Below, in pieces: positions 28,162 through 60,313 of a stretch of 64,000 bases of DNA. This stretch comes from Sphingobium sp. Cam5-1 (GTDB lineage Bacteria; Pseudomonadota; Alphaproteobacteria; Sphingomonadales; Sphingomonadaceae): contig NZ_CP065140.1 of the NCBI RefSeq assembly GCF_015693305.1, positions 124,001 to 188,000 on the forward strand, read 5' to 3'. Numbering within the stretch: position 1 is the stretch's first letter; each line of letters opens with the position of its first letter. The position numbers were made by a program, and so were the translations under genes. The notes beneath the pieces were generated by a model. That model had not been told where the DNA came from. It saw only the letters and a program-made list of their open reading frames with translations, and made no database searches.

Positions 28162-28177
28162 TTTGCGTATTCGCAAA
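28162..28177. promoter_or_regulatory. Palindromic element, TTTGCG-type, imperfect copy
   Basis: TTTGCGTATTCGCAAA, a near-perfect 16-bp palindrome, 75 bp upstream of the ATG at 28252. A half-site (ATTCGCAAAG) lies about 20 bp further upstream at 28137-28146. It belongs to the same family as the sites at 50293, 56311 and 59933. See findings. Confidence 0.5.
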
Positions 28178-28251
28178 AAAATGGCTGGACGTGAATCCTT
28201 GCCGATCCTCCCGGCATTGCATGAAAGGCCGTCAGGCTCCATAGCGGTCTC

Positions 28252-28437
28252 ATGACTGGGACCGCCACCGCCTTCTGCTCGATCCTGGAGCGCATCCCCC
28301 AATGGGTCCGCGATGATTTCGCGCGCAAGGACCCAGCGATTAGACAGCGGGCGGAAGAAACATTTGCAGCGATGCTCGTGATCGCTCTGGAACAATCCGC
28401 GCCAGAGGCGATGAGCAAGGAAATGCTCGGCAAATAG
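28252..28437 (+). CDS. Small cytoplasmic protein (DUF6771-like)
   Basis: A 61-residue protein, containing ILERIPQWVRDDFARKDPAIRQRAEETFAAMLV. I recall similar 60-70 residue proteins annotated as DUF6771 in sphingomonads; the similarity is from memory. It is predicted to be helical with no signal. Located 75 bp downstream of a palindromic element shared with three other loci, so it may be under common control. Confidence 0.55.
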   Translation: MTGTATAFCSILERIPQWVRDDFARKDPAIRQRAEETFAAMLVIALEQSAPEAMSKEMLGK

Positions 28438-28704
28438 CCGAGCTCCAACCCGGATCATATAGCAGGAATGATCCGCCTTTCCTCGAAATCGGAGTAAAGG
28501 CGCAATGGAGATGATCTTTTTGATCTGACCGCCGTTCCTTTCTCGAATGCTCGTCAGATGCTTCAATGCTCATCTTCGACGCCGTGGTCCCGAATCGCCG
28601 ACGCCGTCCGTCCCCGGGAAGAGCGAGCCGCCAAGCCGCGCCAGATGGCCCGCGCCGTTCGCCTCAAGCTTAGGACAGGACCACGTCATTGCAGCGATCA
28701 ATCA

Positions 28705-28953
28705 TCAGCGATTGAATATGGAGCTTGTAAGAAGTTGCCTGATGCTGCGCGCCTGAGCTAGCTTGGCAGGGTCGGACTGCATTTCAAGTTTCCTCGCCCA
28801 GCTTGCAAGCTCGTCGCGGACCTCGTCCTTGATACCCGGCGCGCGGCGCTCCAGTACCGTCAGCAACGCCATACCAGCTGTGAGCCCCCAGTCCATACTT
28901 GACGTCTGCGACCCGCTTGCCTGTCCAAGGCTCGACTTGATCCTTTCCCCCAT
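28705..28953 (-). CDS. Small hypothetical protein
   Basis: An 82-residue frame with MDWGLTAGMALLTVLERRAPGIKDEVRDELASWARKLEMQ, amphipathic and mostly helical, no signal or known domain. Protein-like composition and isolation between non-coding stretches support a gene, but no clear ribosome site was seen. Nothing else is supported between 28438 and 28704. Confidence 0.4.
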   Translation of the reverse strand: MGERIKSSLGQASGSQTSSMDWGLTAGMALLTVLERRAPGIKDEVRDELASWARKLEMQSDPAKLAQARSIRQLLTSSIFNR

Positions 28954-29496
28954 TTCTGGTGCTCCCTGCCTCTCCCGGATAAAGCCGGTGCCGTAATATC
29001 AAGTCGCGGACATGGTCAACGCCGCGCTTGCGCTCGTCCCAATCATGGACAGAAATGGCCGAAACAGCCTGCCGGCGACAGGCCGGACGGCAAATCGTCC
29101 CGGCGCCACGCAAACGCGATGACGCCGGGACCCCGACGCCGGCTTGCGACCCGAATGGCCTCGGGAATTCCGGCAAGGAAAAGGGCCTGAACCATGCCGG
29201 ATCCGGCCGCTCTATCCTTGTTTCGTCCGGGAGTCGAAAGAAACCGAATAGAAAGGTGAATATCGAGTATCACCCTGATATTGCGATTGCTTGACCGCAC
29301 AATCATCAAGGACGCAAATGAATATGCCGCATCGTCCAGCCTGGGGGCGGTGAAGGTACAAAAGGCTTGCCCATTGTGCGCAGGTCAGGGGAAACTGGAA
29401 ATGGTCTTGGCAAGATACTTGAGAAGATCGTCGAACGCTGCGGTCCCGGGTATTTTCCGGCTTTTATCGAGAAATCTCCGCTGTCAGACAAGCGGG
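28954..29496. other. Intergenic region without a supported gene
   Basis: About 540 bp upstream of the MASE1 kinase. The kinase frame is open through 29281-29496, and an ATG at 29401 (with a purine-rich GGGGAAACTGGAA ahead) could add 32 residues to it, but the encoded peptide is not membrane-like. No RNA gene or repeat is seen. Confidence 0.4.
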
Positions 29497-31688: not shown

Positions 31689-31880
31689 GGCGCAGACTTG
31701 CCCTGCCGAACCTTCTCGGACCGTTGATCGGCAAGCGCTGGCCCTCCGATGATGAGCGGACCTGAAGGCTCCGGGAAAAACCCGGATAGGCGCGGACATA
31801 TTTGTCGGCCACAGGATGAAACGCGACCCGAAGGAAGCTATTTCAGCTTTCTTTTACCTGACCCGGCCTGAACGGTCGGG

Positions 31881-32879: not shown

Positions 32880-32946
32880 AAGCGGACGATCCAGCAACAA
32901 AGGACATCCATGTCCTTGTTCGGTCCAGCGGGCCCTCCCGGCTGCC

Positions 32947-33846: not shown

Positions 33847-33968
33847 GGCGCGTCCATTGTTCCGATTTTTCGTACAGTGATGCCATTTCTAGCGACATTA
33901 TCCCCTCTGCTCCAGCGCCTATATGCAGATTCGCCCCTGGCAGACCTGACAATTTCCGGAGAAAACAG

Positions 33969-34709: not shown

Positions 34710-34737
34710 ACGCGGTCATGCGGGCGGCGGCAGGAAG

Positions 34738-34769: not shown

Positions 34770-34810
34770 GGACAGGATGGCGCCTTTCGCACCGTGGCCC
34801 TGCTGCTTAG

Positions 34811-40419: not shown

Positions 40420-41616
40420 ATGTTGTCAGGCCAGATACTGGATACGATGATCAGCTCCTGCGAGAACGCGAAAACCGTTCTGCGCCGCGCCGCCATCGAC
40501 CCATCAGACCGCAAGACCCTCAACATCACCATGGGCGCCACGGTCGCTGCGGAGTTTCTCGGGCGAACTCCGGAGGCTCTCGCCAAGGCTGAAGCTCGCG
40601 GGCGCCTTCCCGCTCCAAAGGTTTCCAATAATGGCCGCCGCTTCTACACCGTAGAAGATCTGATCGCCATTCGCGAGACGCTCGGCATCAAGATGGGCAA
40701 GCTGCCCGACGAACGGGCGGTGGTTATCGCGGTTCAGAACTTCAAGGGCGGCGTGAGCAAGTCCACCACTTCGAAACATCTCGCCGATTATCTGGCGTTA
40801 CGCGGTTATCGCGTCCTCGTCGTCGACTGCGATCCCCAAGCCTCCATGAGCGTCATGTTCGACGTCGATCTGGAGGGACTGGTGGACGAGACGCATACAC
40901 TCTCCAATTTCCTGTCTCCCCGTATCGATGAGGCGGAGTCGTTCCGCAAGACCATCAGGCCCACGGCCTGGCCCAATATCGATATTTGCCCGGCGAATCT
41001 GGGATTGCAGGACACGGAATGGGAACTGACGGCGACGATCGAGGAAGGCCCTCAAGCGATCGCCGGGGCCTTCCGGATGCTGCGTATCGGATTGGAGGAA
41101 GTCCGCCGCGATTATGACGTGATCATTCTCGATCCGCCGCCCGCGATGGGCTTTCTAGGCGTCAATACCCTGAGCGCGGCGGACGGCCTCCTGATCCCCG
41201 TTCCTGCCCGCCAGCTTGATTATCTCTCCACCATTCATTTCATGCAGACCTGCCGGGAAGCGATGAGTCTGGTATCCAAGTTCGATGCGTCGATCGACTA
41301 TGGATTCATCCGCGTGGTTTGCACCATGTTTCAGCCGAACCGCACGAACGAAGCGCAGATGCTCCAGGTCATGGAAAAGACCTATGCGGGCCAGATGCTA
41401 TCCACTCCGATCCTGCTCTCGGAGGAAATAAAGAACGCCGGCATTGCAATGTCGTCGGTCTACGAAATCAACAAGCCCTATGGTTCGCATCAGACTTATA
41501 CGCGGTGCCGCAACAATCTCAATTCAGTCTTCCGCGAACTGGAAAAGGATATCTGCAAGCAGTGGCCGTCGCGTATCGTGCAGCTCGGCACTGATCGCCT
41601 GACGGAGGCAGCATGA
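40420..41616 (+). CDS. parA: ParA/RepA-like partition ATPase
   Basis: A 398-residue type Ia ParA. An N-terminal MerR-like HTH (ITMGATVAAEFLGRTPEAL...RRFYTVEDLIAIRETLG, about 36-90) precedes the deviant Walker A KGGVSKST (109-116), VLVVDCDPQAS (Walker A') and DVIILDPPPAMG (Walker B). It should drive plasmid segregation with ParB and autoregulate the operon through its HTH. ATG 40420 has a G-rich site upstream. It overlaps parB by ATGA. The large form with HTH is typical of plasmid and chromid partition loci, including repABC-like ones. Confidence 0.9.
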   Translation: MLSGQILDTMISSCENAKTVLRRAAIDPSDRKTLNITMGATVAAEFLGRTPEALAKAEARGRLPAPKVSNNGRRFYTVEDLIAIRETLGIKMGKLPDERAVVIAVQNFKGGVSKSTTSKHLADYLALRGYRVLVVDCDPQASMSVMFDVDLEGLVDETHTLSNFLSPRIDEAESFRKTIRPTAWPNIDICPANLGLQDTEWELTATIEEGPQAIAGAFRMLRIGLEEVRRDYDVIILDPPPAMGFLGVNTLSAADGLLIPVPARQLDYLSTIHFMQTCREAMSLVSKFDASIDYGFIRVVCTMFQPNRTNEAQMLQVMEKTYAGQMLSTPILLSEEIKNAGIAMSSVYEINKPYGSHQTYTRCRNNLNSVFRELEKDICKQWPSRIVQLGTDRLTEAA

Positions 41617-42671
41617 GCAGCGGAGCGGGACGACGCCGCAGTCTTTTGACAACTGCCATCGACAGCCTCGGCTCGCCGCCGGCGGTTTCCGAACCAGAGG
41701 CGCCGCATGCGGCACCGGCTGAACCATCTCGTCGCGAGCCTGCCGCCCCCTCCTTCCTGGAGAGGCGCGGGGTGGCCTTTGACGAGATCGCGCGCACCGT
41801 AAAGCGGCTGACCATCCGTGTACGGCCGGACGAATGCAGCGTGTGGCCGGGCAATGCGCGTGATTATGCCGGGCTTAGCTATGAGCGTTGCGCTTCCCTT
41901 ATCGACTCCATCAAGGAGGAGAATGGCAACCGGGAACCCGTGGTCGTCCGCCGGACGCCGGACGGTGAAAAGCCCTATGAACTGATCGTCGGGACCAGGC
42001 GCCATTTTTCGGTGTCATGGCTGCGCGAGAATAACCACGCCGAGATTGATCTCATCGCGCGCATTGAAACGCTTGACGATGAAGGCGCCTTCCGGCTCGC
42101 CGATATAGAGAACAGAGAGCGCGAGGACGTCACCGACCTTGAGCGAGCGCGCAATTATCTTCACGCGGTCGACGCCTATTATAACGGCATCCGCAGCCAT
42201 ATGGCCGATCGCCTCGCGATCGGGAAGCAGAACCTGCACAATCTGCTGCAGCTCGCCGAATTGCCCGACGATGTGGTGCGGGCATTCGCAGATCCGGCCG
42301 ATATCAAGGTTCGTCACGGCATGAAGCTGTCTCCCCTCCTCAAGCAACCAGGTTTGCGTGAAGCGATCCTGGAGGTCGCAAGAGAGATTACGCGCGAGCA
42401 AGGTGAACGGCGAACGGCGGGAGAGACTCCAATCGAAGGCCCGCAAGTCTTCCAGCGCCTTGCTTCGGCCAGTCCGGTAAGGCGGGAGCCCGCGCGCCGC
42501 GTGAAAGCCGCGGTCAATGCCCTGGACGGCGATCAGATCGGCATGATTGTCTCTGACACACGGGCGCGCGGAATTACGATCAACATCAATCCGCGAAGGC
42601 CGATCAACGTAGACGAAATTCTCTCGGCCCTGCGCCCGGTCATCGAGGCCGCGAAGTTCAGCAAAAAATAG
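41613..42671 (+). CDS. parB: ParB/RepB-like centromere-binding protein
   Basis: A 352-residue ParB. The CTPase/N-terminal domain shows SLIDSIKEENGNREPVVVRR, LIVGTRRHFSVSWL (the G-x-R-R box) and AFRLADIENREREDVTDLERARNYL; the HTH region is SHMADRLAIGKQNLHNLLQLAELPDDV. A basic, variable N-terminus of about 60 residues precedes it and a small C-terminal dimerisation segment follows. It pairs with the upstream ParA. The palindrome at 42704-42721 immediately downstream is a candidate binding site. Confidence 0.9.
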   Translation: MSSGAGRRRSLLTTAIDSLGSPPAVSEPEAPHAAPAEPSRREPAAPSFLERRGVAFDEIARTVKRLTIRVRPDECSVWPGNARDYAGLSYERCASLIDSIKEENGNREPVVVRRTPDGEKPYELIVGTRRHFSVSWLRENNHAEIDLIARIETLDDEGAFRLADIENREREDVTDLERARNYLHAVDAYYNGIRSHMADRLAIGKQNLHNLLQLAELPDDVVRAFADPADIKVRHGMKLSPLLKQPGLREAILEVAREITREQGERRTAGETPIEGPQVFQRLASASPVRREPARRVKAAVNALDGDQIGMIVSDTRARGITININPRRPINVDEILSALRPVIEAAKFSKK

Positions 42672-42703
42672 TTTTTTCGCGCTAAAACAATACCTTACTA
42701 ATC

Positions 42704-42721
42704 GGTAAAACATGTTTTACC
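42704..42721. promoter_or_regulatory. 18-bp palindrome upstream of repA (candidate parS or operator)
   Basis: GGTAAAACATGTTTTACC is a perfect palindrome in the 70-bp gap between parB and repA. Its 16-bp core GTAAAACATGTTTTAC recurs exactly at 44882-44897. Size and location fit a ParB centromere site or a repA operator. Confidence 0.55.
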
Positions 42722-42743
42722 AGACGCTATCCGGGGAATGGCA

Positions 42744-43868
42744 ATGGTTTCCAAGAAGGTCGGTCGAGACGACAGTCAGGTAGACCTGTTCCTCCCGCAG
42801 CTCACCGCCCTGCCCTTGCGCGATCAGCGCGAGACGATGGAGCGTCCCTTTTTCTCGCTTTCAAAACGCAAGCGCCTCAAGCCGATCGATTATGTAAGTC
42901 CCGACGGAAAGGTGACGGTTCACGTCAGCGCCAACTCGGAATATGGCCTTGCGACCATCTATGATCTGGACGTCCTGATTTATTGCGCCTCGGTCCTGAT
43001 CGAACACAAGAGGCGGGGTGTGAACGACATCCCCCAAACCCTTCACGTCGTCCCCTATGACATGCTTTCAACGCTCAAGCGTGATGTGGGCGGCAGGGCC
43101 TATGAATTGCTCGGCAATGCACTGGACCGCCTGCAGTCGACGACCGTCAAAACCAACATCCGCTCGGGCGATGCGGTGGAAACCACCTTTTCCTGGATCG
43201 ACAGCCACAGCCAGCTCAAGGACCGCAATGGGCAAGTGCGCGGGATGCGGATTACGCTGGCCAAATGGTTCTATGATGGCGTTCTCATGGAAGGCGGCGT
43301 ACTTGCCATCGATCCGGCCTATTTCTCGCTGACGGGTGGGCGAGAGCGCTGGCTTTATCGCGTAGCGCGCAAACATGCGGGCGGAGCCGGCCCTGACGGA
43401 TTCTCGATTTCCATGCCGACATTGTACGAGAAATCGGGCGCGGAGGGGGATTATCGTCGCTTCAAATTCGAGATGACGAAAATCGCACGAGAGAACAGTC
43501 TTCCTGGATATTCGCTGGAACTTCTTCAGCGCGATGGCGGCGAGCCGTTCCTTCGGATGGCCAAACGTGCTCTGGATGAAGTCCCCTCCCCCTCCCCTTC
43601 AAGCGGCTTCGCGCCCGCCGTTGACGCCTCGAAGCCCGGGACCGCCGCTGCCGAGGAAGAGCCCGTGAGTTTCCCCTTGCAGGGATCGATCGCCTTTGGT
43701 GCTTTTGGAGCGATTGCCCGGGCTAATCTTCCCTCGCCGCAGCGCGATCACGAGGCTGTTGCAAATGATTTCAGGAACTTCCTGAGATCGCGCGACATCG
43801 CTTTCGACGCCAGTAACATCACCCAGATTTTCGCGACCTTCTGCACCAAACAACGTTCCGCGATCTGA
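42744..43868 (+). CDS. repA: RPA-family replication initiator
   Basis: Replication initiator protein A family (PF10134-type), used by alphaproteobacterial plasmids. Recognised segments: QVDLFLPQLTALPLRDQRETMERPFFSLSKRKR, IDYVSPDGKVTVHVS, IYDLDVLIYCASVLIE, PYDMLSTLKRDVGGRAYELL and GGRERWLYRVARKHAG. ATG 42744 is preferred because GGGGA lies 6-7 nt upstream; ATG 42738 is too close to it. The protein (374 residues) ends in a Pro/Ala linker and a short conserved-looking tail. It probably binds the iterons found just downstream. It follows parA-parB in the same direction. Confidence 0.9.
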   Translation: MVSKKVGRDDSQVDLFLPQLTALPLRDQRETMERPFFSLSKRKRLKPIDYVSPDGKVTVHVSANSEYGLATIYDLDVLIYCASVLIEHKRRGVNDIPQTLHVVPYDMLSTLKRDVGGRAYELLGNALDRLQSTTVKTNIRSGDAVETTFSWIDSHSQLKDRNGQVRGMRITLAKWFYDGVLMEGGVLAIDPAYFSLTGGRERWLYRVARKHAGGAGPDGFSISMPTLYEKSGAEGDYRRFKFEMTKIARENSLPGYSLELLQRDGGEPFLRMAKRALDEVPSPSPSSGFAPAVDASKPGTAAAEEEPVSFPLQGSIAFGAFGAIARANLPSPQRDHEAVANDFRNFLRSRDIAFDASNITQIFATFCTKQRSAI

Positions 43869-48538: not shown

Positions 48539-50290
48539 ATGGAAAGAAACAGGGCAATTTCGGTGCTCCCCGGCATCTCACGGGCAACTGGCCGCTTATC
48601 CGGGCAACAGAGGCCGGAAGGCGTAGTAAAACTCGTCTTGGTGATGATCCTTGCGATCGTCTTGCTGTTGCCCACCATCGCCCGCGCCCAGGGTGCACAG
48701 GCCGGCGTCAATGATTTGGGCAGCGCGCCCGTTATCGACCGCGACCGAACCGACCGGGTCGCGCCGCGTCTGGAGCAGGGGCCCGCCACTCCCGCGGCAT
48801 CCGCGCCATCGCCTCAAGTGGCGCCTGCGTCGCCTTCTGCTGCCAGCGTCCAGCTCGCCCGTGTGCGTTATGAAGGCTCCTCGCTCCGCCAGTCCGTCCT
48901 GGATGAAGCAGTCGCGCCGTTTATCGGTCACCCCCTGACTAACGCCACCTTGCAGGGGGTCGCCAACGCAGTGACCGCCGCCTACGGTCGAAGCGATATT
49001 GCTTTTTATGCTGTCTCGATCCCCGCCCAGGCGCCCGTGGGCGGCGAGATCAAAGTCAGGGTCGTTGAAGGGCGAATAAAAAATTATACGTTGAGCGGCA
49101 TCTCGCCTAGCGCCCCGGTGAAGTTGATCGGGGCCCATATGCAGCGTCTGATGCGCGAGGATCCACTGCGTAAATCCACGCTGGAACGCACTTTGTCACT
49201 GCTGCGCGATATCCCGGGGCAGACGGTCAATGTAGCTGTTCGCCAGATGCCAACGGCCGGTGATCTGATCCTCGATGTGATCGTCAAGCGTAAGCAACTC
49301 GATATTGGACTTACGATAGACAATAGCGGGGTAAGCAATGTCGTGGAGGGCGTCCAGGCGCAACTTTCGGTAGCGGCGCATGGACTTGTTCGCGAAGGCG
49401 ATAGTACAAGGGTTTCCGCTTATCTTCCCTTCTATCCGGATCGATATACATATTATTCGCTGAGCCACAGCACGCCATTGGGAAGCAATGGTCTGACTTT
49501 GTCCGCGAACTTCGCGCAGGTTAATACCAAGTCTCGGGGAACGCACATAAAAGGTGAGGCGACGCTCGCGGGGGTTTCCCTTACATATCCGATCATCCGA
49601 TCGTACAAGAAAAATCTGTCCGCAAGCCTGTCGCTCGATGGAATCAACAGCACCAATTATTATCTCGATACCGAGTTTGGTGATTATCGGTCCCGAGCGG
49701 TCCGAGCGGGGCTGTCATGGTCCGATGTGGGGCCCAAGAATGGCTATGCTGCATCTGCCGTGGTGAGCCAGGGGATCAACGCCATTGGCGCCAAAGCCTT
49801 TACCGGATTTTCGGAGATTAAATTTTCCAAGGTGAATATACAGGCAATAGCGGTTAAAACGCTATTGAATAACTTGACAGCAAAAGTGACTGTTAAAGGG
49901 CAATATTCCAAGGATAAGCTTCCGGTAACCGAGAGATTTTCCTTGGGGGGAAGGGGTGCCGGCATGGCTTATCGGATCGGTACCATAACATCCGATCAGG
50001 CACTTGCATCCAACCTGGAATTGAGCTGGTCGCTTCCGGCGAAGTCTCCGGTTTTGAAGGCGACATCCTTGTTCGCTTATGTGGATGGTGCAGTAGCCCA
50101 CGCTGTTGCGCGACCATATTATGGGATTGCTGCGCAGGATTATTCACTTGCATCGGCCGGCGGCGGCGTGCGCGTGGGCGTAGGGAAGGGCTGGCGCGCG
50201 AGCGCCGAAATTGCACTCCCGGTCAAGCGCCCTAACGACGCCTATAGCAGGAAGGCGCGCTTCTTCTTCGGGCTTGGTCGAGCGTTTTAG
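48539..50290 (+). CDS. TpsB/ShlB/FhaC-type outer-membrane transporter
   Basis: A two-partner secretion transporter of up to 583 residues. After a hydrophobic signal (LVLVMILAIVLLLPTIARAQ, about 32-51) and an Ala/Pro spacer comes a POTRA region (VRYEGSSLRQSVLDEAVAPFIGHPLTNATLQGVANAVTAAYGRSDI; IKVRVVEGRIKNYTL), a second POTRA-like stretch, and a 16-strand-type barrel (LTIDNSGV, VSAYLPFYPDRYTYYSLSHSTPLGSNGLTLS) with SLGGRGAGMAYR in place of the usual V-R-G-Y lid motif and a C-terminal Phe. The start is uncertain: ATG 48539 leaves about 30 residues before the signal, but later ATGs give too short a signal. It has lower GC than its surroundings. No TpsA exoprotein lies next to it. Confidence 0.85.
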   Translation: MERNRAISVLPGISRATGRLSGQQRPEGVVKLVLVMILAIVLLLPTIARAQGAQAGVNDLGSAPVIDRDRTDRVAPRLEQGPATPAASAPSPQVAPASPSAASVQLARVRYEGSSLRQSVLDEAVAPFIGHPLTNATLQGVANAVTAAYGRSDIAFYAVSIPAQAPVGGEIKVRVVEGRIKNYTLSGISPSAPVKLIGAHMQRLMREDPLRKSTLERTLSLLRDIPGQTVNVAVRQMPTAGDLILDVIVKRKQLDIGLTIDNSGVSNVVEGVQAQLSVAAHGLVREGDSTRVSAYLPFYPDRYTYYSLSHSTPLGSNGLTLSANFAQVNTKSRGTHIKGEATLAGVSLTYPIIRSYKKNLSASLSLDGINSTNYYLDTEFGDYRSRAVRAGLSWSDVGPKNGYAASAVVSQGINAIGAKAFTGFSEIKFSKVNIQAIAVKTLLNNLTAKVTVKGQYSKDKLPVTERFSLGGRGAGMAYRIGTITSDQALASNLELSWSLPAKSPVLKATSLFAYVDGAVAHAVARPYYGIAAQDYSLASAGGGVRVGVGKGWRASAEIALPVKRPNDAYSRKARFFFGLGRAF

Positions 50291-50292
50291 CG

Positions 50293-50312
50293 ATTTTGCG
50301 TATACGCAAAAT
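50293..50312. promoter_or_regulatory. Palindromic element, TTTTGCGTATACGCAAAA copy
   Basis: ATTTTGCGTATACGCAAAAT, a perfect 20-bp palindrome, directly after the TpsB stop and 67 bp upstream of the dioxygenase start. Its poly-T side is 5' on both strands, so it does not have the form of an intrinsic terminator. Confidence 0.6.
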
Positions 50313-50378
50313 TGGCCATTCACCAGATCCAAAGGTCCGGAACGGCGGGCGGTCTCTTCCAACGAAAGAAGTTTGGCT

Positions 50379-50939: not shown

Positions 50940-51096
50940 GTGATCACGCGGTCCAAAACGATTTTGGATGGCGGTTGCCTGGCGGATCGTTGCCCGATCT
51001 GTAAGGGACAATTCGCGCCCGATCGCCGCGATCCCGCGCTTCTGATCGGCTGACGGGATTCTCCTATCTTTCCCCAATTTGCAGGCAGTGCAGCCA

Positions 51097-52597: not shown

Positions 52598-54811
52598 ATG
52601 GCATTTCATGGATCGCTCCGTTCAGGACGGCGCTATCTCCTGTGCGCCACGGCCATTCCGCTTCTTCTCCTGGGGGCATGTGCCGATGGCGTCGGTTTCG
52701 ACATAGGCGCGGGCGGCGGACAAAATCCCTCCGGCCCCTCCGGCCCGGGTGGTCCAACCGGCCCCACTGACCCGAGTGGTCCTGGCGGTCCGACTGGTCC
52801 CGGTGGTCCGTCCGGCCCCACTGATCCGAGCGGCCCTGGGGGCCCGACTGGTCCTGGTGGTCCGACTGGTCCTGGTGGTCCGACTGGCCCTGGGGGCCCG
52901 ACCGGTCCTGGTGGCCCGACCGGCCCTGGTGGCCCGACCGGCCCTGGTGGCCCGACCGGCCCTGGTGGCCCGACCGGCCCTGGTGGCCCGACCGGTCCTG
53001 GCGGCCCGACCGGCCCTGGTGGCCCGACCGGCCCTGGTGGCCCGACCGGCCCTGGTGGCCCGACCGGTCCTGGCGGCCCGACCGGTCCTGGTGGCCCGAC
53101 CGGTCCTGGTGGTCCGACTGGTCCTGGCGGCCCGACCGGTCCTGGTGGCCCGACTGGCCCTGGTGGCCCGACTGGCCCCGGTGGTCCGACTGGCCCTGGT
53201 GGTCCGACTGGCCCCGGTGGCCCGACTGGCCCTGGTGGTCCAACCGGCCCGGGAGGACCTACTGGTCCATCCGCGCTTAACGGGCCGATCGTTGGTGGCA
53301 ATGTCGGAAATGTCACGGTTGGTGGTCCCAGCGGCTCCAGCACGCTGGTCGGCGTGAATGTGTTGCCGGGTTCGTCTTCATCGACAGGCGTTCTGGCGAC
53401 CGTCGATGTCCTGACCGACGAAGGCACCGTTGCGCAGGTCACACTGCCTACCACCACTGAGCAGGTCCAGCAGGGTCTCGCGCCGGTTGGCTCCTTGACG
53501 GGCGCACTGCTGGGGGATCAGGTGGGAGGTGCTGTAACACAGCTCACCAATGGTCTTTCACCTACCGTGGCGGCCGTCACATCGACCGTCGACCAGGTGA
53601 CTGGGCCGCTCCTCGATACCGTGAACGGTGTCCTGGCGCCGGTGACCGGGCAATTGATTGGCGACAACGGCGCTCTCGCACCGGTGACGGGGCTCGTCGA
53701 GAACCTGGTCGGCGGACTGACTGGCACATTGCCGGGGAGCCCAACCGATCCGGCGGGCACGCTCAATGGTCCCTTGATTGGTGCCAATGCCGGCGGCAAT
53801 TCGCTGACCGGGGCAAGCACCGCCGATACGCTGGCAGGAGTCAACCTGCTGAACCCGACGGGCGAAAATGCGGCCACGGGTCAGCTCGTCACGGTCGGCG
53901 TGCTCTCGCAGGGAACCATCGTCGATGTTGCGCTGCCAACCACCGCGGCAGGCGTTGAGGCGGGCCTTGCGCCCGTCGCCAACCTGACCGGAACATTGCT
54001 CGGCTCCCAGGTCGGAGCAACGGTCGGTCAGGTCACAACCGGTCTCGCGCCGGTCGCCGCCGCTGTCACATCGACTGTGGACGGCGTGGTCTCGCCGGTC
54101 CTTGACGCCGTCAACACCCTGGCTCCTGTCCTGAACGGCGCTACCGGCGGATCGCCGCTTGCACCCGTGACGGGTATCGTGGGCTCCGTCCTTGGCGGCG
54201 AGGGTGCTGGAACGGGATCGGTGCTTGCACCTGTGACGGGTGTCGTCAGTTCAGTCCTCGGAGGAGTTACGTCCGGCGGCGCGACTGGCGGTGTGCTTGC
54301 GCCCGTGACTGGCGTTGTTGACTCTGTCCTGGGGGGCGGAACGGGCGCCGGTTCGGTGCTTGCTCCGGTCACTGGAGTTGTAAACTCGGTCCTGGGCGGT
54401 GACGCCACTGGCGGGGCGGGCTCGGTCCTGGCACCTGTAACGGGGGTCGTGAACTCCGTCCTTGGTGGAGATGCCACCGGCGGTGCGGGCTCGGTCCTCG
54501 CCCCGGTCACCGGAGTTGTGAACTCGGTGCTGGGCGGTGGCGCGACAGGTGGAGCGGGCACCATTCTCGCCCCGGTCACTGGTCTCGTCAATTCAGTCGT
54601 CGGTGGCGCCACTGATGGTTCGGCCGGAGGCGTTCTGGCTCCGGTGACCGGCGTTGTCGGCTCTGTGCTGGGAGGAGGCACGGGCTCAGGCTCGGTTCTC
54701 GCTCCCGTAACGGGCGTCGTGAGTTCGGTGCTTGCACCGGTCACGGGCGGCAGCGGCACGGCTGCGCCGGTCACGGGCCTTCTCGGAGGTCTCCTCAAGG
54801 GAGGAAACTGA
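52598..54811 (+). CDS. Collagen-like repeat lipoprotein
   Basis: A 737-residue surface protein. From ATG 52598 (AGGGAG 7 nt upstream) the signal [19 protein letters not shown] leads to a lipobox L-L-G-A-C28. Residues about 46-224 are Gly-Pro-X triplets, mostly the six-residue unit GPGGPT. Two related modules follow (each GP[IL][IV]G..., TLVGVN or TLAGVN, V.LPTT, AVTSTVD), then about ten repeats of LAPVTGVV[ND]SVLGG to the end (about 520-735). The first part should form a triple helix. It is probably anchored in the outer membrane as an adhesin or matrix protein. No enzyme motif is seen. Confidence 0.85.
52757..53270 (+). repeat. 18-bp tandem repeat encoding Gly-Pro-Gly-Gly-Pro-Thr
   Basis: About 25 near-identical copies of an 18-bp unit of the type GGTGGCCCGACCGGCCCT with third-base variation, inside the collagen-like gene. 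Such an array is prone to slippage, so copy number may vary between isolates. Confidence 0.9.
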
Positions 54812-54992
54812 CATTGAGCGCCGTCCGGCCCTGCCCCAATTTTGGGCCGGACGATGCTCATGAGCCATCGCTGCTTCACGCAGACACAGCGGTGATGGCC
54901 GGGGGGCGAGGGGACAGGCGGGTCGCACTGTCCCCTCGGCCTTGAATTGGAAAGGCGATGATGATGTCGCAGTCTTGCATGAGGTGCGTAGT

Positions 54993-56297
54993 ATGAAAGC
55001 GGTCGAAAAGGAGAGCAGGCATTATCTCCTCACGGTTCGTCTGAATAATTATTCAGCACTCTGTGCAGCCTATGGCGACGAGTTGGCCAACAACGCTCTC
55101 AAGCATGTTCGAAGAAGTCTTGAGCGCCATCTCGGCAAGGTTCTGATCGCAGCGGTTGAGAGTGAGGCGCTGACAGTTCTGGCGGAAAACAGGCTCCTTG
55201 AGAGCTATTCCCCCGACGAATTGGTTGAAATACTCTGTTCCATCACAAGCGCCGAGCCCTTTCGCTGCGCCGATGTGGACGTCCTGCTTGACATATGCGC
55301 GGCCTACAGACCTGTCGATGCCTCGACGACCCCTGAGGACTTCGAGCGCCTCCTGGCCGAGGCTACTGCCGAACTGGAATTTGCCCATCCGCGTTCCATT
55401 GCTACCTGGCGTAGTATGTCGGCCAAGGAAGAGGCGCGTTACCGTGCGGACATGGCTCGCTCTGTCGCTTTGCTGAAAGCCATCAGGCGCCGGACAGCAT
55501 TTTTAGTATGGCGGCCGATCGCCGATCCCAACGACCGTGGCCGCATTCTCTATTATGACGGCAGATTGCGGCAGGCCAACGGAAGCGGTCAGCAGGTGGA
55601 ATGCGACACTGCGGTCACAGCATTTGAACGTCTTGGCCTCTCTCATATCATCGATCTCCAGCTTGTTTCCGACGTGCTGGACGAGCTACAGGCCGACCCT
55701 CTGGCGCGGTTGTCTATTCCGGTGTCCGCGAAGAGTCTGAGCGCCAGTCTCTTTGGCCGGGAAGCGGGATGGAATGAAATCTTCACGCGGTTGCATCGCG
55801 ATGCAGCGCTCGGTCCACGACTGATCCTGGAGGTCGCCGACACGAGTGACTTGCCTTCCGATATCGAGCTGGAGCCTTTTCTCGATCGGATTCGAGCCTT
55901 GGGCGTTCGCCTGGCCGTCGGCCGTTTCGGCGGTCTTGCATCGTCGATCGAGCAGCTTATCGGCATTGCGCCGGACATCATCAAGATCGACAGCGGCTTC
56001 CTCCATACCGCCCATCAGTCTGACAGAAGCCGTGCGCGTGTTGGCCCGTTGCTTGACCTCGCTCGGACTGTGGCGCGCATTGTCGTGCTTGATGGCGTTG
56101 CCTCGTCCTGGCACCTGTTGTTGGCGCTCGATGAAGCTGCTGAATGGGTGGCCGGATCCTATGTCGGCGGAACCAGTATTGGCCGCGACTGGGTCAAGGC
56201 CGATTATGGGGATGCAGTCGCAGGCCTGAGCAGCTTCAATCATGCCTTCGGCGATTATGGCAGCGGGCCGCGAAACGGGCATCACACGACACACTAG
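54993..56297 (+). CDS. Degenerate EAL-domain protein
   Basis: A 434-residue protein from ATG 54993 (GAGGTG upstream; TTG 54942 would add 17 residues). The N-terminal part (LLTVRLNNYSALCAAYGDEL...) looks like a shrunken GGDEF-like domain without the motif. The C-terminal half has the EAL fold: FLVWRPIADPNDRGRILYYDGRLR, LGPRLILEVADTSD, IRALGVRLAVGRFGGLAS, PDIIKIDSGFL, AGSYVGGTSIG. The catalytic E-A-L is replaced by Y-D-G and the usual D-D-F-G by V-G-R-F-G, so it is probably an inactive c-di-GMP receptor or regulator. It lies between two surface-protein genes on the same strand. Confidence 0.75.
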   Translation: MKAVEKESRHYLLTVRLNNYSALCAAYGDELANNALKHVRRSLERHLGKVLIAAVESEALTVLAENRLLESYSPDELVEILCSITSAEPFRCADVDVLLDICAAYRPVDASTTPEDFERLLAEATAELEFAHPRSIATWRSMSAKEEARYRADMARSVALLKAIRRRTAFLVWRPIADPNDRGRILYYDGRLRQANGSGQQVECDTAVTAFERLGLSHIIDLQLVSDVLDELQADPLARLSIPVSAKSLSASLFGREAGWNEIFTRLHRDAALGPRLILEVADTSDLPSDIELEPFLDRIRALGVRLAVGRFGGLASSIEQLIGIAPDIIKIDSGFLHTAHQSDRSRARVGPLLDLARTVARIVVLDGVASSWHLLLALDEAAEWVAGSYVGGTSIGRDWVKADYGDAVAGLSSFNHAFGDYGSGPRNGHHTTH

Positions 56298-56304
56298 TTT
56301 TTTA

Positions 56305-56336
56305 GGGGCATTTTTGCGTTTACGCAAAAATGCCCC
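56305..56336. promoter_or_regulatory. Extended palindromic element, TTTTTGCG-TTTA-CGCAAAAA copy
   Basis: A 32-bp inverted repeat with 15-bp arms: GGGGCATTTTTGCGT (56305-56319) and the matching ACGCAAAAATGCCCC (56322-56336). It contains the same TTTTTGCG/CGCAAAAA core as the sites at 50293 and 59933 and is 74 bp upstream of the barrel-protein start. It could also serve as a 3' hairpin for the EAL gene, but no T-tract follows. Confidence 0.55.
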
Positions 56337-56409
56337 TCCGACCGGCAGGATCGCCCGCGATGTGCAAGGCGATCAGCATAAAGAATAGAAGAAAAGGGGA
56401 TCAGACCCA

Positions 56410-57639
56410 ATGTTCAAGGCAGAGACGACATTCAGGCGGTTCATGCAGAAGGGCCTGATGGCCGCCGCGTTGCTGGGTGCGGCGGGCATGACGGCAGCCC
56501 ATGCCGCGCCCTATGGTCCTTATGCAAGCACGCCAGGGGAGGCCTCGCTGGGCTCTTCGCTTGATTCAGCAACTACCGCTCCGGTAGGCGATCGCGCGGC
56601 GATGCTGCAATCTCTCGACGCTCTTCCCACCGCTGCAGAGCGTGCAGATGCGCTGGGGCAGTTGTCGGCGCGTAGCTATTCCCTCTTACCCCGCCTTTCG
56701 ATCCAGTCCATGGACTCGGCTGATCGCGAAATCCGCAGCTATCTTGTCGAGCGGCGCAATATCGCTTCGAGCGCGAGCGCGGATGTGCCGGTCCGCGGCG
56801 ATCGCACCATCAACATGATGCTGGTGGGGGGGCTGAAGCAGGCGACCTACAAGGGCCGGGTCGACCGGCCGGAAGCGAAGAGTGATTCACGTTCGGTCCG
56901 CTTCGCCATCGATGTGAGCCCGATTGAGAATCTCATCGTCGGTGCGACCCTGGGGATCGACGGAATCGATGCGAAGCTGGACTCAGGACAGAAGCCCCGG
57001 ATCACGGCGTTCAATACGAACATCGGACCCTATGCGAGCTTCAATAACGGCAAATTCTACATCGACGCGACGGCGGGCTATAATTTCTCCGAGTTCAAGC
57101 TGCGGCGCCAGGTCGGCTGGACGGGCTTTTCCGACAGGATGCGCGCCAATGTCGATGGCGATGGCTGGCATGCGACAACGGAAGTGGGCGCCATGCTCCG
57201 CGCCGCCAATATCAAGCTGCAGCCCTTTGTCGGCCTGCAATATCGCTATGCCGACATTGGCGGCTTCATGGAAGGTGGCGGGGCCGCATCGCTCGAAGTT
57301 GCCAGCTATCGCACCAAGTCCCTGCGGGCGAGCGTCGGTGCGCGCGCGTCGGCCACGATCGACACGGGCCGCTGGGCGATCCGGCCGTCAGTAGAGGCTC
57401 AGTATCAGCGGGAACTTCGCAGCCAGCCCGACAGCCGCATCGAAGCCCGCTTCGTGGCCCGCGACCTCGACATCTTCACGCTCAATCCGACACGGCTGGC
57501 GCGCAATGCGGCGTTGCTGAGCGCAGGAGCGTCGGCGACCTATAACAGCCGCACGACCTTCCGGCTGGGCTATACGGGAGAATTGAGCTCGGATCGCAAT
57601 GTTCATGCGGCAGTTCTTTCGGTAAGCCGACGCTTCTGA
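56410..57639 (+). CDS. Autotransporter-type outer-membrane beta-barrel protein
   Basis: A 409-residue protein: signal peptide (KGLMAAALLGAAGMTAAHA), a short helical linker to about residue 130 (AMLQSLDALPTAAERADALGQLSARSYSLL) and a 12-strand-type autotransporter barrel (FAIDVSPIENLIVGATLGIDG; IGPYASFNNGKFYIDATAGYNFSEFKLRR; FVGLQYRYADIGGF) ending in the expected C-terminal Phe (SVSRRF). There is no passenger of significant size, so it may be a stand-alone porin-like or adhesive barrel. GAAAAGGGG lies upstream of ATG 56410. It is 74 bp after a palindromic element. Confidence 0.8.
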   Translation: MFKAETTFRRFMQKGLMAAALLGAAGMTAAHAAPYGPYASTPGEASLGSSLDSATTAPVGDRAAMLQSLDALPTAAERADALGQLSARSYSLLPRLSIQSMDSADREIRSYLVERRNIASSASADVPVRGDRTINMMLVGGLKQATYKGRVDRPEAKSDSRSVRFAIDVSPIENLIVGATLGIDGIDAKLDSGQKPRITAFNTNIGPYASFNNGKFYIDATAGYNFSEFKLRRQVGWTGFSDRMRANVDGDGWHATTEVGAMLRAANIKLQPFVGLQYRYADIGGFMEGGGAASLEVASYRTKSLRASVGARASATIDTGRWAIRPSVEAQYQRELRSQPDSRIEARFVARDLDIFTLNPTRLARNAALLSAGASATYNSRTTFRLGYTGELSSDRNVHAAVLSVSRRF

Positions 57640-57741
57640 TGGGGTGAGCGGGGCAAAAACAACCGAAGCGAACGCAATTGCGCGCGATGTATGCGCAATG
57701 TGGCGCTATGAGGCGGGGAAAGGCGATAGCGGGAGCGTTCC

Positions 57742-58779
57742 ATGGCTGGATTCATGAAGGACATATTGGAAACGCTCTCCTATGATCCGGCCCCCATGCG
57801 CCAGGTGGCAGCACGGGAGGACGCGCTGAGCCGTCTTGACCAGCGGCTTGCCAATGTCGCAGGGGCTGGATCCGATGGGCGTACTACCATCCGTATCCAG
57901 CCGGGCGAATGTGTCGTCTGGGATGGAAATCCGCGGGACCAGCCGGGTCTGACGGCGGAAAGCTGCCAGTCGCTGATCGAGTCCATAGCGCAGGAAGGGG
58001 GAAACCGGATCCCCGTGCTCGTCCGCATGAACGGGGCGGACGTGGATCGGCCTTATGAGCTGATCGTAGGCAGCCGGCGCCGCTTCGCGATTGACTGGCT
58101 CAACCATAATGGCCGCCCCGAACTGCGCCTGACGGCGCTGGTTGTTGATCTGTCCGACGAGGAGGCGTTCCGGCTCGCCGATATCGAGAATCGAGAGCGG
58201 GCAGACATCACCGAGCTCGACCGCGCGCGCAGCTATCAGGCTGCGGTGGATCGCTTCTACGGGGGCGTTCAGTCCCGCATGGCCAATGCGCTTAACCTTT
58301 CGAACAGTCAGTTGAGCCGTCTGCTCGCGCTTGCCCTGTTGCCCGAGGAAATCGTGGATGCGTTCGGTACGCGCGCGGAACTTCGGGTCAGGCATTCGGA
58401 AGTCCTGACACCGCTCCTCAAAAGGGTGGAGCAGCGCATGCGCATGCTGGCGGAGGCCCGGCGGATCTCCGCGGAGCAGCAGGAAAGGTCGGTCCAGGGG
58501 GATCGGCTGCTTGCACCGGCAACGGTTCTGGCGCGCCTGCGGGAATCGGTCGCCAGCCCTGGGCAGGATGAGCCGCGCGACATCGAGATCATTGCTGGAG
58601 GCGAACGGGTTGGACGCGCCAAGCCGGCAAGGGGCGGGGGCGTCCAGATCGATCTCAATGTGACCGAGGAGACGGATCTGGACGAACTGCTTTCCCGCCT
58701 TCGGGCCACGATCGTTGCCGCACGGGCTGGTGGAGGAGGAGAGGGAGAGCAGGTGGCCTCTGAAGAGGCGGCAGCCTAG
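57742..58779 (+). CDS. Second ParB-like protein without ParA partner
   Basis: A 345-residue ParB/RepB-family protein related along its length to the ParB at 41613-42671: ECVVWDGNPRDQPGLTAESCQSLIESIAQEGGNRIPVLVR, LIVGSRRRFAIDWL, AFRLADIENRERADITELDRARSYQAAVDRFYGGVQSRMANALNLSNSQLSRLLALALLP. No parA gene and no copy of the GTAAAACATGTTTTAC palindrome is next to it. It may be a nucleoid-type or regulatory ParB, a leftover from a fused replicon, or work with the ParA at 40.4 kb. It follows the barrel gene by about 100 bp. Confidence 0.85.
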   Translation: MAGFMKDILETLSYDPAPMRQVAAREDALSRLDQRLANVAGAGSDGRTTIRIQPGECVVWDGNPRDQPGLTAESCQSLIESIAQEGGNRIPVLVRMNGADVDRPYELIVGSRRRFAIDWLNHNGRPELRLTALVVDLSDEEAFRLADIENRERADITELDRARSYQAAVDRFYGGVQSRMANALNLSNSQLSRLLALALLPEEIVDAFGTRAELRVRHSEVLTPLLKRVEQRMRMLAEARRISAEQQERSVQGDRLLAPATVLARLRESVASPGQDEPRDIEIIAGGERVGRAKPARGGGVQIDLNVTEETDLDELLSRLRATIVAARAGGGGEGEQVASEEAAA

Positions 58780-58879
58780 AGCATTTTCCAGGCAGATGGC
58801 ATCATCTGCTGGCTCGCAAAATGCGGGAAACAGCAGGCAAATGGAGCATGGTCCGAGTCAGTCTGATCGGACGATGCTC
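58779..58879. repeat. REP-like bipartite element, copy 2
   Basis: Begins with GAGCATTTTCC right after the ParB stop and ends with the 36-bp inverted repeat at 58844-58879 (GAGCATG...TCTGATCGGAC...ATGCTC). It matches copy 1 at 48313-48414 in both ends, while the middle differs. It lies between convergent genes. Confidence 0.6.
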
Positions 58880-58903
58880 TACCTCCGCTCGATGGCGGCC
58901 CTA

Positions 58904-59839
58904 TCATTTCGTCTGCCCGCTGAGATGATCCAGGATGACCTGCTCGACATCGGGACTGATGAGCAGAAAATCGCGCCGGCCATCCTTGTCGTCGGGTATG
59001 CGGCAGAGGACCTCATTCTTGACCATTCGGTTGATCAACCGAAGGGCAGTCGTCGTTGGCATGCCCGATGCGATGCAGGCGCTTGAAACAGAGACGGTGC
59101 GTCCTTCGAACTTCGCGAGCAGAAGGTCGAGCAGCATGTGCCAGGCCGGGTCGCCGAAAATCTCGCCGCCGATCAGTTCCCGCCTTTTGAGTTCCGCGCG
59201 CAATTGCGCGCGGATATAGTCTGCGTCAATGGGCACCGCACGGCCGTGGGCCTGGACGGGATCGTCCATTTGTTGCGCGAGGCGTTGCAGTTCGGAACTC
59301 AGTGAGGAGATCTTGTTGAGGAGCGTGGAGCGGCTGGCAGGGGTGTCGTGAAGGCCGCTGACGCGCAGGATGGATCGCCTGAGGTCGTCCCTGCTGACCG
59401 GTTTCTGCAGGAAATCCGCGATAGAGGCGCGCATCGCGCCGACGGCGACATCGACTGTCGCATGGCCGGTGACCATGATGAAGCGCAGGCTCCGATCCTC
59501 TTCCTCGGCCCGGGAAGTCAGTTCCTGAACCAGGGCAAGGCCGTCGCAGTCAGGCATGCTGTAGTCGACGATGACAAGTGAGATGTGTTCGTCGTGCATA
59601 TGGACGAGGGCCTCTTCGGCCGAGCAGGCGCTGACCGATGGATAACCAAGCATATCGAGCATGAAGGCGCACTCGGAGGCCCACTCACGATCGTCATCGA
59701 CGATCATCACGGTGCCGATATGCGGAAGCTGCGCCTTGGCGCTATCAGGCAGGCCCAGATCCTCCAGCCGCGCACGTGGCACAGGCCTTTCTTTAGCCTC
59801 CCATCCATTCATCCGGATGTTCATTTCTGTAAGCCCCAT
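58904..59839 (-). CDS. Response regulator with MarR-like winged helix
   Basis: A regulator of up to 311 residues. Receiver domain: TVMIVDDDREWASEC (about 43-57), phospho-Asp in LVIVDYSMPDCDG, T in IMVTGHAT and K in FLQKPVSRDD, like NtrC/ActR receivers. A helical linker leads to a C-terminal winged helix, VSSACIASGMPTTTALRLINRMVKNEVLCRIPDDKDGRRDFLLISPD, with a MarR-like wing. Start is at ATG 59839, 59824 or 59812. It begins 12 nt after the stop of the peptidase-like gene on the same strand, so it may be the last gene of the Tad operon and its regulator. A palindromic element lies about 95-115 nt upstream, inside that gene. Confidence 0.8.
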   Translation of the reverse strand: MGLTEMNIRMNGWEAKERPVPRARLEDLGLPDSAKAQLPHIGTVMIVDDDREWASECAFMLDMLGYPSVSACSAEEALVHMHDEHISLVIVDYSMPDCDGLALVQELTSRAEEEDRSLRFIMVTGHATVDVAVGAMRASIADFLQKPVSRDDLRRSILRVSGLHDTPASRSTLLNKISSLSSELQRLAQQMDDPVQAHGRAVPIDADYIRAQLRAELKRRELIGGEIFGDPAWHMLLDLLLAKFEGRTVSVSSACIASGMPTTTALRLINRMVKNEVLCRIPDDKDGRRDFLLISPDVEQVILDHLSGQTK

Positions 59840-59851
59840 ACAGAAAGGTTA

Positions 59852-60313
59852 TCAAGTCGCCAAACCTTGATGAACCTGAACAATCAGAATTGCAATAGCT
59901 GCGATTGCTTCAGAATCGGGGCGCAATACTGCTTTTTTGCGTATACGCAAAAAAATGACCGAGATCACGAATAGTAGAATGGCCAACGAAAGCATGAGCA
60001 CTGCTCCAACAGGGCCAAGCCATGCAGCGCCGGCTGCCATAAGCTTGATTTGGCCGCCAGAAAGGAGGCGCAGCTTGCAGGTCCTGCGCATATAGGCGAT
60101 CGCGCCGGCAAGAAGGAGCAGAATGGCGATGCCTGCGGCAAGCGAGACGATCGCACCACCCAAGCCCCGAGAGGTCAAGGTGAAGGCGATGCCCGCCGCG
60201 CCGAGCAGGAGGTAGAGCCAGTTCGGAACATTACGCTGTTCCCACGCCAGGACGATGATGGGAAGCAGGATGAGAATGAGTGTGGAGATCGCGATAAGCT
60301 GCACGCCCGTCAT
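59852..60313 (-). CDS. Prepilin peptidase-like membrane protein lacking catalytic aspartates
   Basis: A 153-residue protein with about five membrane segments that resembles A24 prepilin peptidases: VLAWEQRNVPNWLYLLLG corresponds to the A-x-x-D-x-R-x-x-I-P-N region and LLSGGQIKLMAAGAAWLG to the G-x-G-D-x-K-L region. The two catalytic Asp appear as Glu (or absent) and Gln. It is therefore probably inactive as a peptidase and may have a structural or regulatory role in pilus biogenesis, the active enzyme being the one at 51097. The last 25 residues are encoded over the 59933-59954 palindrome (FLRIRKK). It abuts tadE. Confidence 0.6.
   Translation of the reverse strand: MTGVQLIAISTLILILLPIIVLAWEQRNVPNWLYLLLGAAGIAFTLTSRGLGGAIVSLAAGIAILLLLAGAIAYMRRTCKLRLLSGGQIKLMAAGAAWLGPVGAVLMLSLAILLFVISVIFLRIRKKAVLRPDSEAIAAIAILIVQVHQGLAT
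59933..59954. promoter_or_regulatory. Palindromic element, TTTTGCGTATACGCAAAA copy, longest perfect form
   Basis: A perfect 22-bp palindrome containing TTTTGCGTATACGCAAAA with two more T/A pairs at each end. It lies within the 3' end of the peptidase-like gene and about 95-115 nt upstream of the minus-strand response regulator. Confidence 0.6.

What the first reader, a model, noticed from the sequence alone, without database searches (positions are those of the whole stretch)
28162..59954. Four dispersed copies of a TTTTGCGTATACGCAAAA palindrome, each upstream of a gene start
Sites: 28162-28177 (imperfect, TTTGCGTATTCGCAAA), 50293-50312 (20 bp perfect), 56305-56336 (extended, centre GTTTAC) and 59933-59954 (22 bp perfect). 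They lie about 67-115 bp upstream of four start codons: a small cytoplasmic protein, a 2OG-Fe dioxygenase, an outer-membrane barrel and a receiver/MarR-like regulator. One lies within coding sequence, so the position relative to starts seems kept even when it costs coding freedom. The T side is 5' on both strands, unlike intrinsic terminators. A shared operator for an unknown dimeric regulator is my inference; the regulator at 58904-59839, itself beside a site, is a candidate. Dispersed REP-like repeats are the alternative.
Basis: partly seen in the sequence, partly recalled or inferred. Interest (0 to 1): 0.7.

Follow-up and report, generated by a model that had tools for sequence, protein, structure and literature searches.

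The report
Binding sites of an orphan ParB
The repeated palindrome is very probably the DNA landing site of a plasmid-segregation-type protein (ParB) that has no partner beside it and now appears to govern a block of cell-surface and pilus genes in sphingomonad bacteria.

Summary
The four palindromes are real (0.09 expected). The 4.37-Mb genome holds eight copies at up to 2 mismatches, five on the window's 351-kb replicon and three on the 1.02-Mb replicon, clustered around paralogous ParB-family genes (window 57742-58779; C2:849068-850096). In relatives the palindrome follows this orphan ParB: among 94 genomes of the genus it is in 15 of 17 with the ParB and 1 of 77 without. At the TpsB/2OG-Fe-oxygenase junction a perfect core stands in 20 of 23 loci while the rest of the spacer varies. 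An unbiased palindrome search ranks it first (22 of 24 loci; next unrelated 7). ParA-linked sister ParBs have sites of the same TTGC-N6-GCAA frame, with centres that vary with the recognition helix. The orphan has no adjacent ParA (0 of 21, against 50 of 50 controls). Best reading: parS-like loading sites of a VirB/KorB/BisD-type ParB clamp that regulates a surface-adhesion island. Binding, CTP use and regulation are inferred.

The parts
28162..28177 (.). palindrome copy 1 (centre TATT), 29.6 kb from the orphan parB; upstream of a 61-aa ORF (DUF6771 match below cut-off)
50293..50312 (.). palindrome copy 2, at the tpsB / 2OG-Fe oxygenase junction, just behind the tpsB stop
   Evidence: perfect core at the same junction in 20 of 23 loci
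56304..56337 (.). palindrome copy 3 (core 56313-56328) inside a longer 16-bp-arm inverted repeat, upstream of the autotransporter gene
   Evidence: a site (up to 1 mismatch) upstream of the orthologous gene in 10 of 16 loci
59933..59954 (.). palindrome copy 4 in the 3' end of the A24 peptidase gene, upstream of the response regulator gene
   Evidence: sites in the same gene end in L081, L082, L084, L091, L096 (1 mismatch) and G291
57742..58779 (+). orphan ParB-family protein, 345 aa (here called ParB2), proposed binder of all sites
48539..50290 (+). TpsB / ShlB-FhaC family outer-membrane transporter
   Evidence: PF03865, PF08479
50379..50939 (+). 2OG-Fe(II) oxygenase (PF13640, the prolyl-hydroxylase-like group by recall)
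   Evidence: PF13640
52484..54811 (+). collagen-like (GGPTGP)n lipoprotein-like protein
   Evidence: translation; no Pfam match, weak SclB-type match below cut-off
54942..56297 (+). EAL-domain protein
   Evidence: PF00563
56410..57639 (+). autotransporter beta-barrel protein
   Evidence: PF03797
   Evidence: PF00072; PF12802 below cut-off
59852..60313 (-). A24 peptidase gene of the Tad cluster; contains site 4
   Evidence: annotation of plasmid 3pYBL2-3
60314..63493 (-). Tad (Flp) pilus genes (TadE-like, TadG-like)
40420..43868 (+). the replicon's own parA - parB - repA locus (ParA 40420-41616, ParB1 41613-42671, RepA 42738-43868), for contrast
   Evidence: PF13614, PF18090, PF10134; annotated likewise in 3pYBL2-3

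Best explanation
The palindrome (consensus TTTGCGTRYACGCAAA, usually with one more T and A outside) is the parS-like binding and loading site of ParB2 (57742-58779), an orphan ParB-family protein related to plasmid partition ParBs. Shown by comparison: site and protein are inherited together, the site sits at conserved places of one gene island, the protein has the ParB N domain with its nucleotide-pocket motifs, the HTH and a predicted C-terminal domain, and it has no adjacent ParA. Inferred: ParB2 dimers bind the site through the invariant recognition helix (SNSQLSR), close as CTP clamps and spread along the DNA, and in this way co-regulate (activate, or relieve silencing of) the surface-adhesion island: TpsB transporter, oxygenase, collagen-like protein, autotransporter, Tad pilus and its own gene. 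A VirB/KorB/BisD-like role is preferred to partition. The sign of regulation is not known.
For: Co-occurrence: 94 genus genomes, site in 15 of 17 with ParB2 and 1 of 77 without (Fisher 2e-14; related genomes, so not independent). Of the two exceptions with ParB2, G306 carries 1-mismatch sites at the same three island positions and G253 is seen on a 5.6-kb contig (L090). In 199 family genomes the site (<=1 mismatch) is in 3, all among the 4 with ParB2 above 50% identity. 19 of 21 ParB2 loci and 0 of 58 other loci of the same search hold a perfect core; 2 of 58 hold one with 1 mismatch. Clustering: in 23 genomes 45 of 64 cores lie within 45 kb of ParB2, 20.8 against 0.18 per Mb; TRYA centres 30 near, 1 elsewhere. 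Junction: 20 of 23 perfect. Unbiased search: first, 22 of 24 loci. Homology of sites: ParA-linked ParBs have TTGC-N6-GCAA palindromes beside parB in 38 of 50 loci against 36 of 366 null windows; the recognition helix is invariant in 24 ParB2 and differs from ParA-linked ones. Orphan status. Not partition: two replicons of one cell share the site (G000; G291 identical site on C2 and C3); ParB2 lies on the rpoB-bearing 3.45-Mb contig in G061.
Against: No binding, expression or CTP data. Some copies behind parB lie between convergent genes and have no start downstream. At the tpsB/oxygenase junction the core is 14 to 68 nt from the oxygenase start, so a promoter would have to overlap it or lie inside tpsB. 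L099/G138 has a ParB2 (54%) and no site at all; L090 has no core at up to 1 mismatch in its 5.6 kb, only TTGC-GTGCTC-GCAA 117 bp before parB2. Ten of the 21 ParB2 loci have just one perfect core in the stretch held, so spreading or co-regulation is not forced by the anatomy. Sites before parB2 itself (8 of 28) are mostly imperfect. The response regulator, EAL and autotransporter genes are not in every island. The classical LGKGL ParA motif is absent in ParB2 but also in all 50 ParA-linked relatives, so loss of ParA contact is not shown by that test.
Confidence: 0.75

Rival explanations
1. Second partition system: the palindromes are centromeres for ParB2, which borrows the ParA of the resident replicon to segregate plasmids or to position the island.
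For: ParB2 is related to partition ParBs and its site has their frame; here both copies lie on secondary replicons; 3 of 21 loci have a ParA 4-6 kb away.
Against: An adjacent ParA in 0 of 21 loci against 50 of 50 controls; the three more distant ParAs have their own ParB. C2 and C3 share the site in one cell, whereas compatible RepABC replicons differ in their palindromes (passages of PMC5613091). Copy on the rpoB-bearing contig in G061. Sites lie at gene junctions up to 42 kb apart.
Confidence: 0.12
2. Operator of a classical regulator other than ParB2 (for instance the receiver/MarR protein 58904-59839) that happens to travel with the island.
For: The sites are palindromic and several lie upstream of starts; the response regulator gene is beside one site.
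Against: That gene is in 8 of 23 distinct genomes (9 with G210) while sites persist without it; in the own genome its only match at 1e-60 is on C3, yet C2 has sites and ParB2; the site frame matches that of sister ParBs. A further, unlisted regulator of the island was not searched for.
Confidence: 0.08
3. Nucleic-acid structure or dispersed repeat (REP-like element, RNA hairpin, bidirectional terminator).
For: Each copy can fold as an RNA hairpin; copy 3 strongly (-25.6 kcal/mol, z -6.4), the others weakly (z -1.6 to -1.7). Pairing 4 to 8 bases outside the core is 14-17 of 42, a little above the roughly 11 expected at this base composition.
Against: Only 8 copies in the genome, in two clusters; copies 2-4 are not among the 7 terminator-like sites; the would-be loop is constrained (T first 38, RY middle 38, A last 37 of 42) and pairing 2 and 3 bases outside the core is at chance (10 and 9 of 42); copies lie inside genes on either strand.
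Confidence: 0.04

Closest known systems
VirB of the Shigella virulence plasmid (virS sites)
   Different: Different site, host class and target genes; VirB was not among the 15 PDB sequence hits at E<=0.1
KorB of plasmid RK2 (OB sites)
   Different: KorB works with KorA and (recalled) also serves partition with the ParA IncC; ParB2 has no adjacent ParA, and a KorA-like partner was not looked for. KorB too was not among the sequence hits
BisD of ICEclc (bisS boxes)
   Same: ParB-like protein that starts from boxes and co-activates promoters of one element (passage of PMC13393423)
   Different: Works with BisC; activates ICE genes, not adhesion genes. The primary paper (gkaf802) is not held and was not read
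Noc of Bacillus (Noc-binding sites)
   Different: Noc sites are spread over the chromosome and it acts on cell division (recalled); here the sites keep to one island
ParA-linked plasmid ParB of alphaproteobacteria (TTGC-N6-GCAA palindromes)
   Same: Sister proteins (32-44% identical); same site frame
   Different: Different centre (CAATTG, ACCGGT, CCATGG, AGGCCT) and recognition helix; beside parA in 50 of 50

Membership tests
ParB/RepB/Spo0J family protein | Family profile over its cut-off | tested here: met
   TIGR00180 99.2 bits, cut-off 58.45; PF18090 43.2, cut-off 27; PF02195 22.2 is below its 26.3
ParB/RepB/Spo0J family protein | Nucleotide-pocket motifs (GxRR and ENxxR boxes; motifs recalled) | tested here: met
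   G110 R112 R113 and E149 N150 R151 R153 invariant in 34 of 34 aligned ParBs
ParB/RepB/Spo0J family protein | N domain, HTH domain, C-terminal dimer domain | tested here: met
   model pLDDT 85.4 with beta-beta-beta-alpha at 281-331; matches to Noc, ParB, KorB, SopB over the first two domains. The C-terminal part is hardly covered by the matches and dimerisation was not tested
ParABS partition system | parA beside parB | tested here: not met
   0 of 21 ParB2 loci against 50 of 50 control loci (tblastn with the ParA of C3; control loci L152-L159 not tested)
ParABS partition system | Palindromic parS near parB | tested here: met
Orphan ParB clamp regulator (VirB/KorB/BisD kind) | ParB homologue outside a parAB operon | tested here: met
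Orphan ParB clamp regulator (VirB/KorB/BisD kind) | Site-dependent, CTP-dependent DNA clamp | not testable with these tools
   needs biochemistry; pocket motifs kept
Orphan ParB clamp regulator (VirB/KorB/BisD kind) | Changes expression of genes near its sites | not testable with these tools
   no expression data; only positions
REP-like dispersed repeat | Many copies scattered over the genome | tested here: not met
   8 copies in 4.37 Mb, two clusters
Intrinsic terminator | GC stem followed by a T run | tested here: not met
   copies 2-4 not among the 7 terminator-like sites in 49800-60400; copy 1 not scanned

The most novel reading that the evidence does not exclude
A surface island of sphingomonads carries its own ParB-derived master regulator: ParB2 clamps load at a handful of parS-like sites and act over tens of kilobases, and, because copies of the island on different replicons share one site, they form a regulatory network that couples the adhesion genes of two replicons in one cell. 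The clade-specific N-terminal amphipathic segment (motif in 24 of 24 ParB2, 0 of 50 relatives) might, as in Noc, also bring the island DNA to the membrane where its products are exported.
Probability: 0.3. Interest if true: 0.8.

Novelty: new member of a known kind. Interest (0 to 1): 0.62.

Why it matters
Only very few orphan ParBs have been investigated (passage of PMC10770331). Here protein, site and candidate target genes are predicted together in about twenty genomes, so that one binding assay and one deletion would test them. The side result, a shared TTGC-N6-GCAA frame whose centre goes with residues of the recognition helix, gives a testable specificity code for a large group of plasmid ParBs and suggests how a segregation protein can turn into a regulator of another gene block.

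Tried and rejected
Receiver/MarR protein as binder: rejected by distribution. REP-like repeat: rejected. RNA hairpin or terminator: disfavoured. Partition: disfavoured, kept as a rival. The PF02195 search of the own genome did not report the ParB2 genes; they were found by reading around the C2 sites. Chromosome check of G061 by 16S rRNA found nothing in either genome, the own one included, so it was uninformative; rpoB was used instead. Classical ParA motif: no discrimination. Promoter scan: no promoter-like match at copies 2-4; sigma-70 consensus only. G138/L099: no site near a 54% ParB2; its tpsB and oxygenase genes nearly abut. G061 has a second oxygenase gene (C1:2073733), and the only core of that genome lies at the first one. 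Cores far from ParB2 or on other contigs (19 of 64) mostly have other centres and are probably chance. Distal sites in G203, G206, G211 were looked at by eye only.

Literature: in the listings I saw no title or abstract start that names this ParB, this palindrome or this island in sphingomonads; only listings were seen for most. The exact-string search found 13 papers with one of five strings; the ten listed hold only the inner 10-mer, three were not shown. Only open-licence PMC full texts are held. Seen as passages: PMC12704722, PMC10770331, PMC11790492, PMC13393423, PMC5613091, PMC9025767. gkaf802 (BisD) is not held and was not read.

Limits of counts: genomes overlap and are related. In one search contig breaks hide true distances. 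One search examined 26 regions; 3 (L082, L086, L090) hold no tpsB/oxygenase pair; L085/L161 and L097/L098 are near copies. (helix key against centre, 49 of 56 agree) used one hand-picked site per locus and classes made after seeing the data, which leans towards agreement; 16 of 72 ParBs without a usable nearby site were left out (L086, L089, L095, L100, L101, L109, L118, L119, L122, L126, L146-L151), so it is descriptive. L099 was left out as the same contig as G138 (G138 is in 76 only); one search also lacks L161. Of the 58 control loci, the 8 weakest (L152-L159) are but not.

Full report
Observation. The four palindromes are at the stated coordinates; at up to 3 mismatches the window holds 4 against 0.09 expected. 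The window is C3:124001-188000 of a five-contig, 4,371,795-bp genome. The whole genome holds eight places at up to 2 mismatches: five on C3 (window 28162, 50295, 56313, 59936 and, outside, 70255) and three on C2 (845289, 848988, 850116); the reversed control pattern has one. The sites are therefore few and clustered.

What they surround. Around a ParB-like gene on C2 (C2:849068-850096) one site begins 80 bp before its first start codon, one about 20 bp behind its stop and one 3.8 kb upstream. Its 63% paralogue on C3 is window 57742-58779, between sites 3 and 4. Both replicons carry the same cassette: TpsB transporter, site, 2OG-Fe oxygenase, collagen-like protein, EAL-type protein, site, (autotransporter on C3), ParB2. 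On C3 the Tad pilus cluster follows and the fifth site lies 47 bp before its annotated cpaB start. Plasmid 3pYBL2-3 of Sphingobium sp. YBL2, whose ParB2, ParA and response regulator are identical, is annotated in the same way. C3 and C2 each have a separate partition locus: parA-parB-repA at window 40420-43868 and ParA, ParB and RepA matches at about C2:737.5-740.6 kb.

Co-inheritance. In 199 genomes of the family the palindrome (up to 1 mismatch) occurs in 3; these are among the 4 genomes with a ParB2 above 50% identity (hypergeometric 3e-6), and the same 4 hold the oxygenase at E<=1e-45. The fourth, G138, has no site. In the 94 genomes held for the genus, the exact TTTGCGTNNACGCAAA is in 15 of 17 genomes with ParB2 and 1 of 77 without. 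Of the exceptions, G306 has one-mismatch sites at the same three island positions, G253 is seen on a 5.6-kb contig (L090), and the lone G196 site has another centre and none of the island genes within about 5 kb. A search of genome contigs gave 79 loci: 21 with ParB2 (54-72%) and 58 others (44% or less). A perfect core is in 19 of 21 and 0 of 58; 2 of 58 have a one-mismatch core. Over 23 whole genomes 45 of 64 cores lie within 45 kb of ParB2 (20.8 against 0.18 per Mb), and 30 of 31 TRYA-centred ones. G217 (= G138) has no core and G208 only a GC-centred one on another contig.

Position. Between tpsB and the oxygenase gene, the perfect core is present in 20 of 23 pairs; L087 has 11 of 12 core bases, L096 10 of 12, and in G138 the genes nearly abut and there is no site; the rest of the spacer differs between species. 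This holds also where the gene pair is turned relative to ParB2 (L092, L097, L098; weaker in L096). At up to 1 mismatch, sites also lie before the autotransporter gene in 10 of 16 loci, within 260 bp before parB2 in 8 of 28 (mostly imperfect) and within 420 bp behind it in 9 of 28. In the genome of L087 a core lies in the start of a cpaF-like gene of the Tad operon (gene name by eye).

Unbiased search. Of all 6-mer half-sites with gaps of 0 to 8, the one found in most ParB2 loci is TTTGCG-N4-CGCAAA, 22 of 24; the best unrelated one has 7. The 42 perfect-core sites give the consensus (T)TTTGCGTRYACGCAAA(A). The central four bases are constrained (T 38, RY 38, A 37 of 42); pairing 2 and 3 bases outside the core is at chance (10 and 9 of 42), and 4 to 8 bases outside it is 14-17 of 42, a little above the roughly 11 expected. 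On balance this fits a DNA site of about 18 bp better than an RNA stem.

Origin of the site. The same unbiased search on 50 ParA-linked ParB loci finds a palindrome of the frame TTGC-N6-GCAA. Such a palindrome with a largely self-complementary centre lies near parB in 38 of 50 loci against 36 of 366 other windows. The ParB2 site is TTGC-GTRYAC-GCAA, the same frame with another centre. Centres go with residues of the recognition helix: NSQ with GT..AC, [ED]S with ACCGGT, [ED][AGTV] with CARYTG, [QP][PA] with CCRYGG, [KQ]S with AG..CT, 49 of 56 (descriptive, see limits). The helix SNSQLSR is invariant in 24 ParB2. This is the strongest link between protein and site.

Mechanism. Two functions are possible for such a pair. 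Partition is disfavoured: no own ParA, a copy on a main chromosome, and the same site on two replicons of one cell (C2 and C3 here; identical TTTGCGTATACGCAAA on both in G291), while palindromes of compatible RepABC replicons differ (passages of PMC5613091). Regulation is preferred: the sites keep to one island of surface genes and often to the front of transcription units, and the described ParB-type proteins VirB, KorB and BisD act on gene expression (passages of PMC10770331, PMC11790492, PMC13393423, PMC12704722). Since such proteins load at a site and slide, a fixed distance to the start is not expected, which fits the varying distances and the copies behind parB. Whether ParB2 activates or represses cannot be told. 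MucR-family genes (silencers in this class, recalled) lie near the island on 3pYBL2-3 and pSRL2, so anti-silencing is a possibility only.

The sites and the idea of a shared operator stand; the receiver/MarR protein is in 8 of 23 distinct genomes (9 with G210) and cannot be the common binder; REP-like repeats are excluded.

Confidence. That ParB2 binds the palindrome: about 0.93. That its main role is regulation of the island: about 0.75. Nothing here was tested at the bench.

Noticed in passing
window 50379-50939 and 52484-54811; G061 C1:2073733 (L198): A prolyl-hydroxylase-like 2OG-Fe oxygenase lies in one cassette with a collagen-like GGPTGP-repeat protein on C3 and C2; a second oxygenase paralogue in G061 lies beside another, PF01391-positive collagen-like protein. 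Possible bacterial collagen hydroxylation pair.
   Followed up: partly
L102-L145, beside parB: ParA-linked plasmid ParBs, mostly of alphaproteobacteria, carry palindromes TTGC-N6-GCAA whose centre goes with the recognition helix.
   Followed up: partly
window 56304-56337: Site 3 is embedded in a longer perfect inverted repeat (AGGGGCAT arms) not seen at the other three window sites; very stable as RNA.
   Followed up: no
L185:5577 and L188:5663: A core with centre TGAA lies between a fumarylacetoacetase-like and a formate-dehydrogenase-gamma-like gene (names by eye) in two Sphingobium genomes, far from ParB2.
   Followed up: no
L186:6398 and L187:7446 (G203 C19): Two TGTA-centred cores about 37 kb and 20 kb from ParB2, one about 60 bp before an ORF start: possible further targets.
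   Followed up: no
L183:5671 and 7085-10003 (G206 C22): A core inside a multicopper-oxidase-like gene (name by eye), 1.4 kb before a TPS-domain adhesin gene (PF05860), a possible cargo of a TpsB transporter.
   Followed up: partly
L160:38955-39470; L161:4160-5029: MucR-family regulator genes near the island on two Sphingobium plasmids.
   Followed up: no
G061 C1:522279: Besides its exact site G061 has TTTTGCGATACGCAAAA, a palindrome with the same half-sites and a shorter centre.
   Followed up: no
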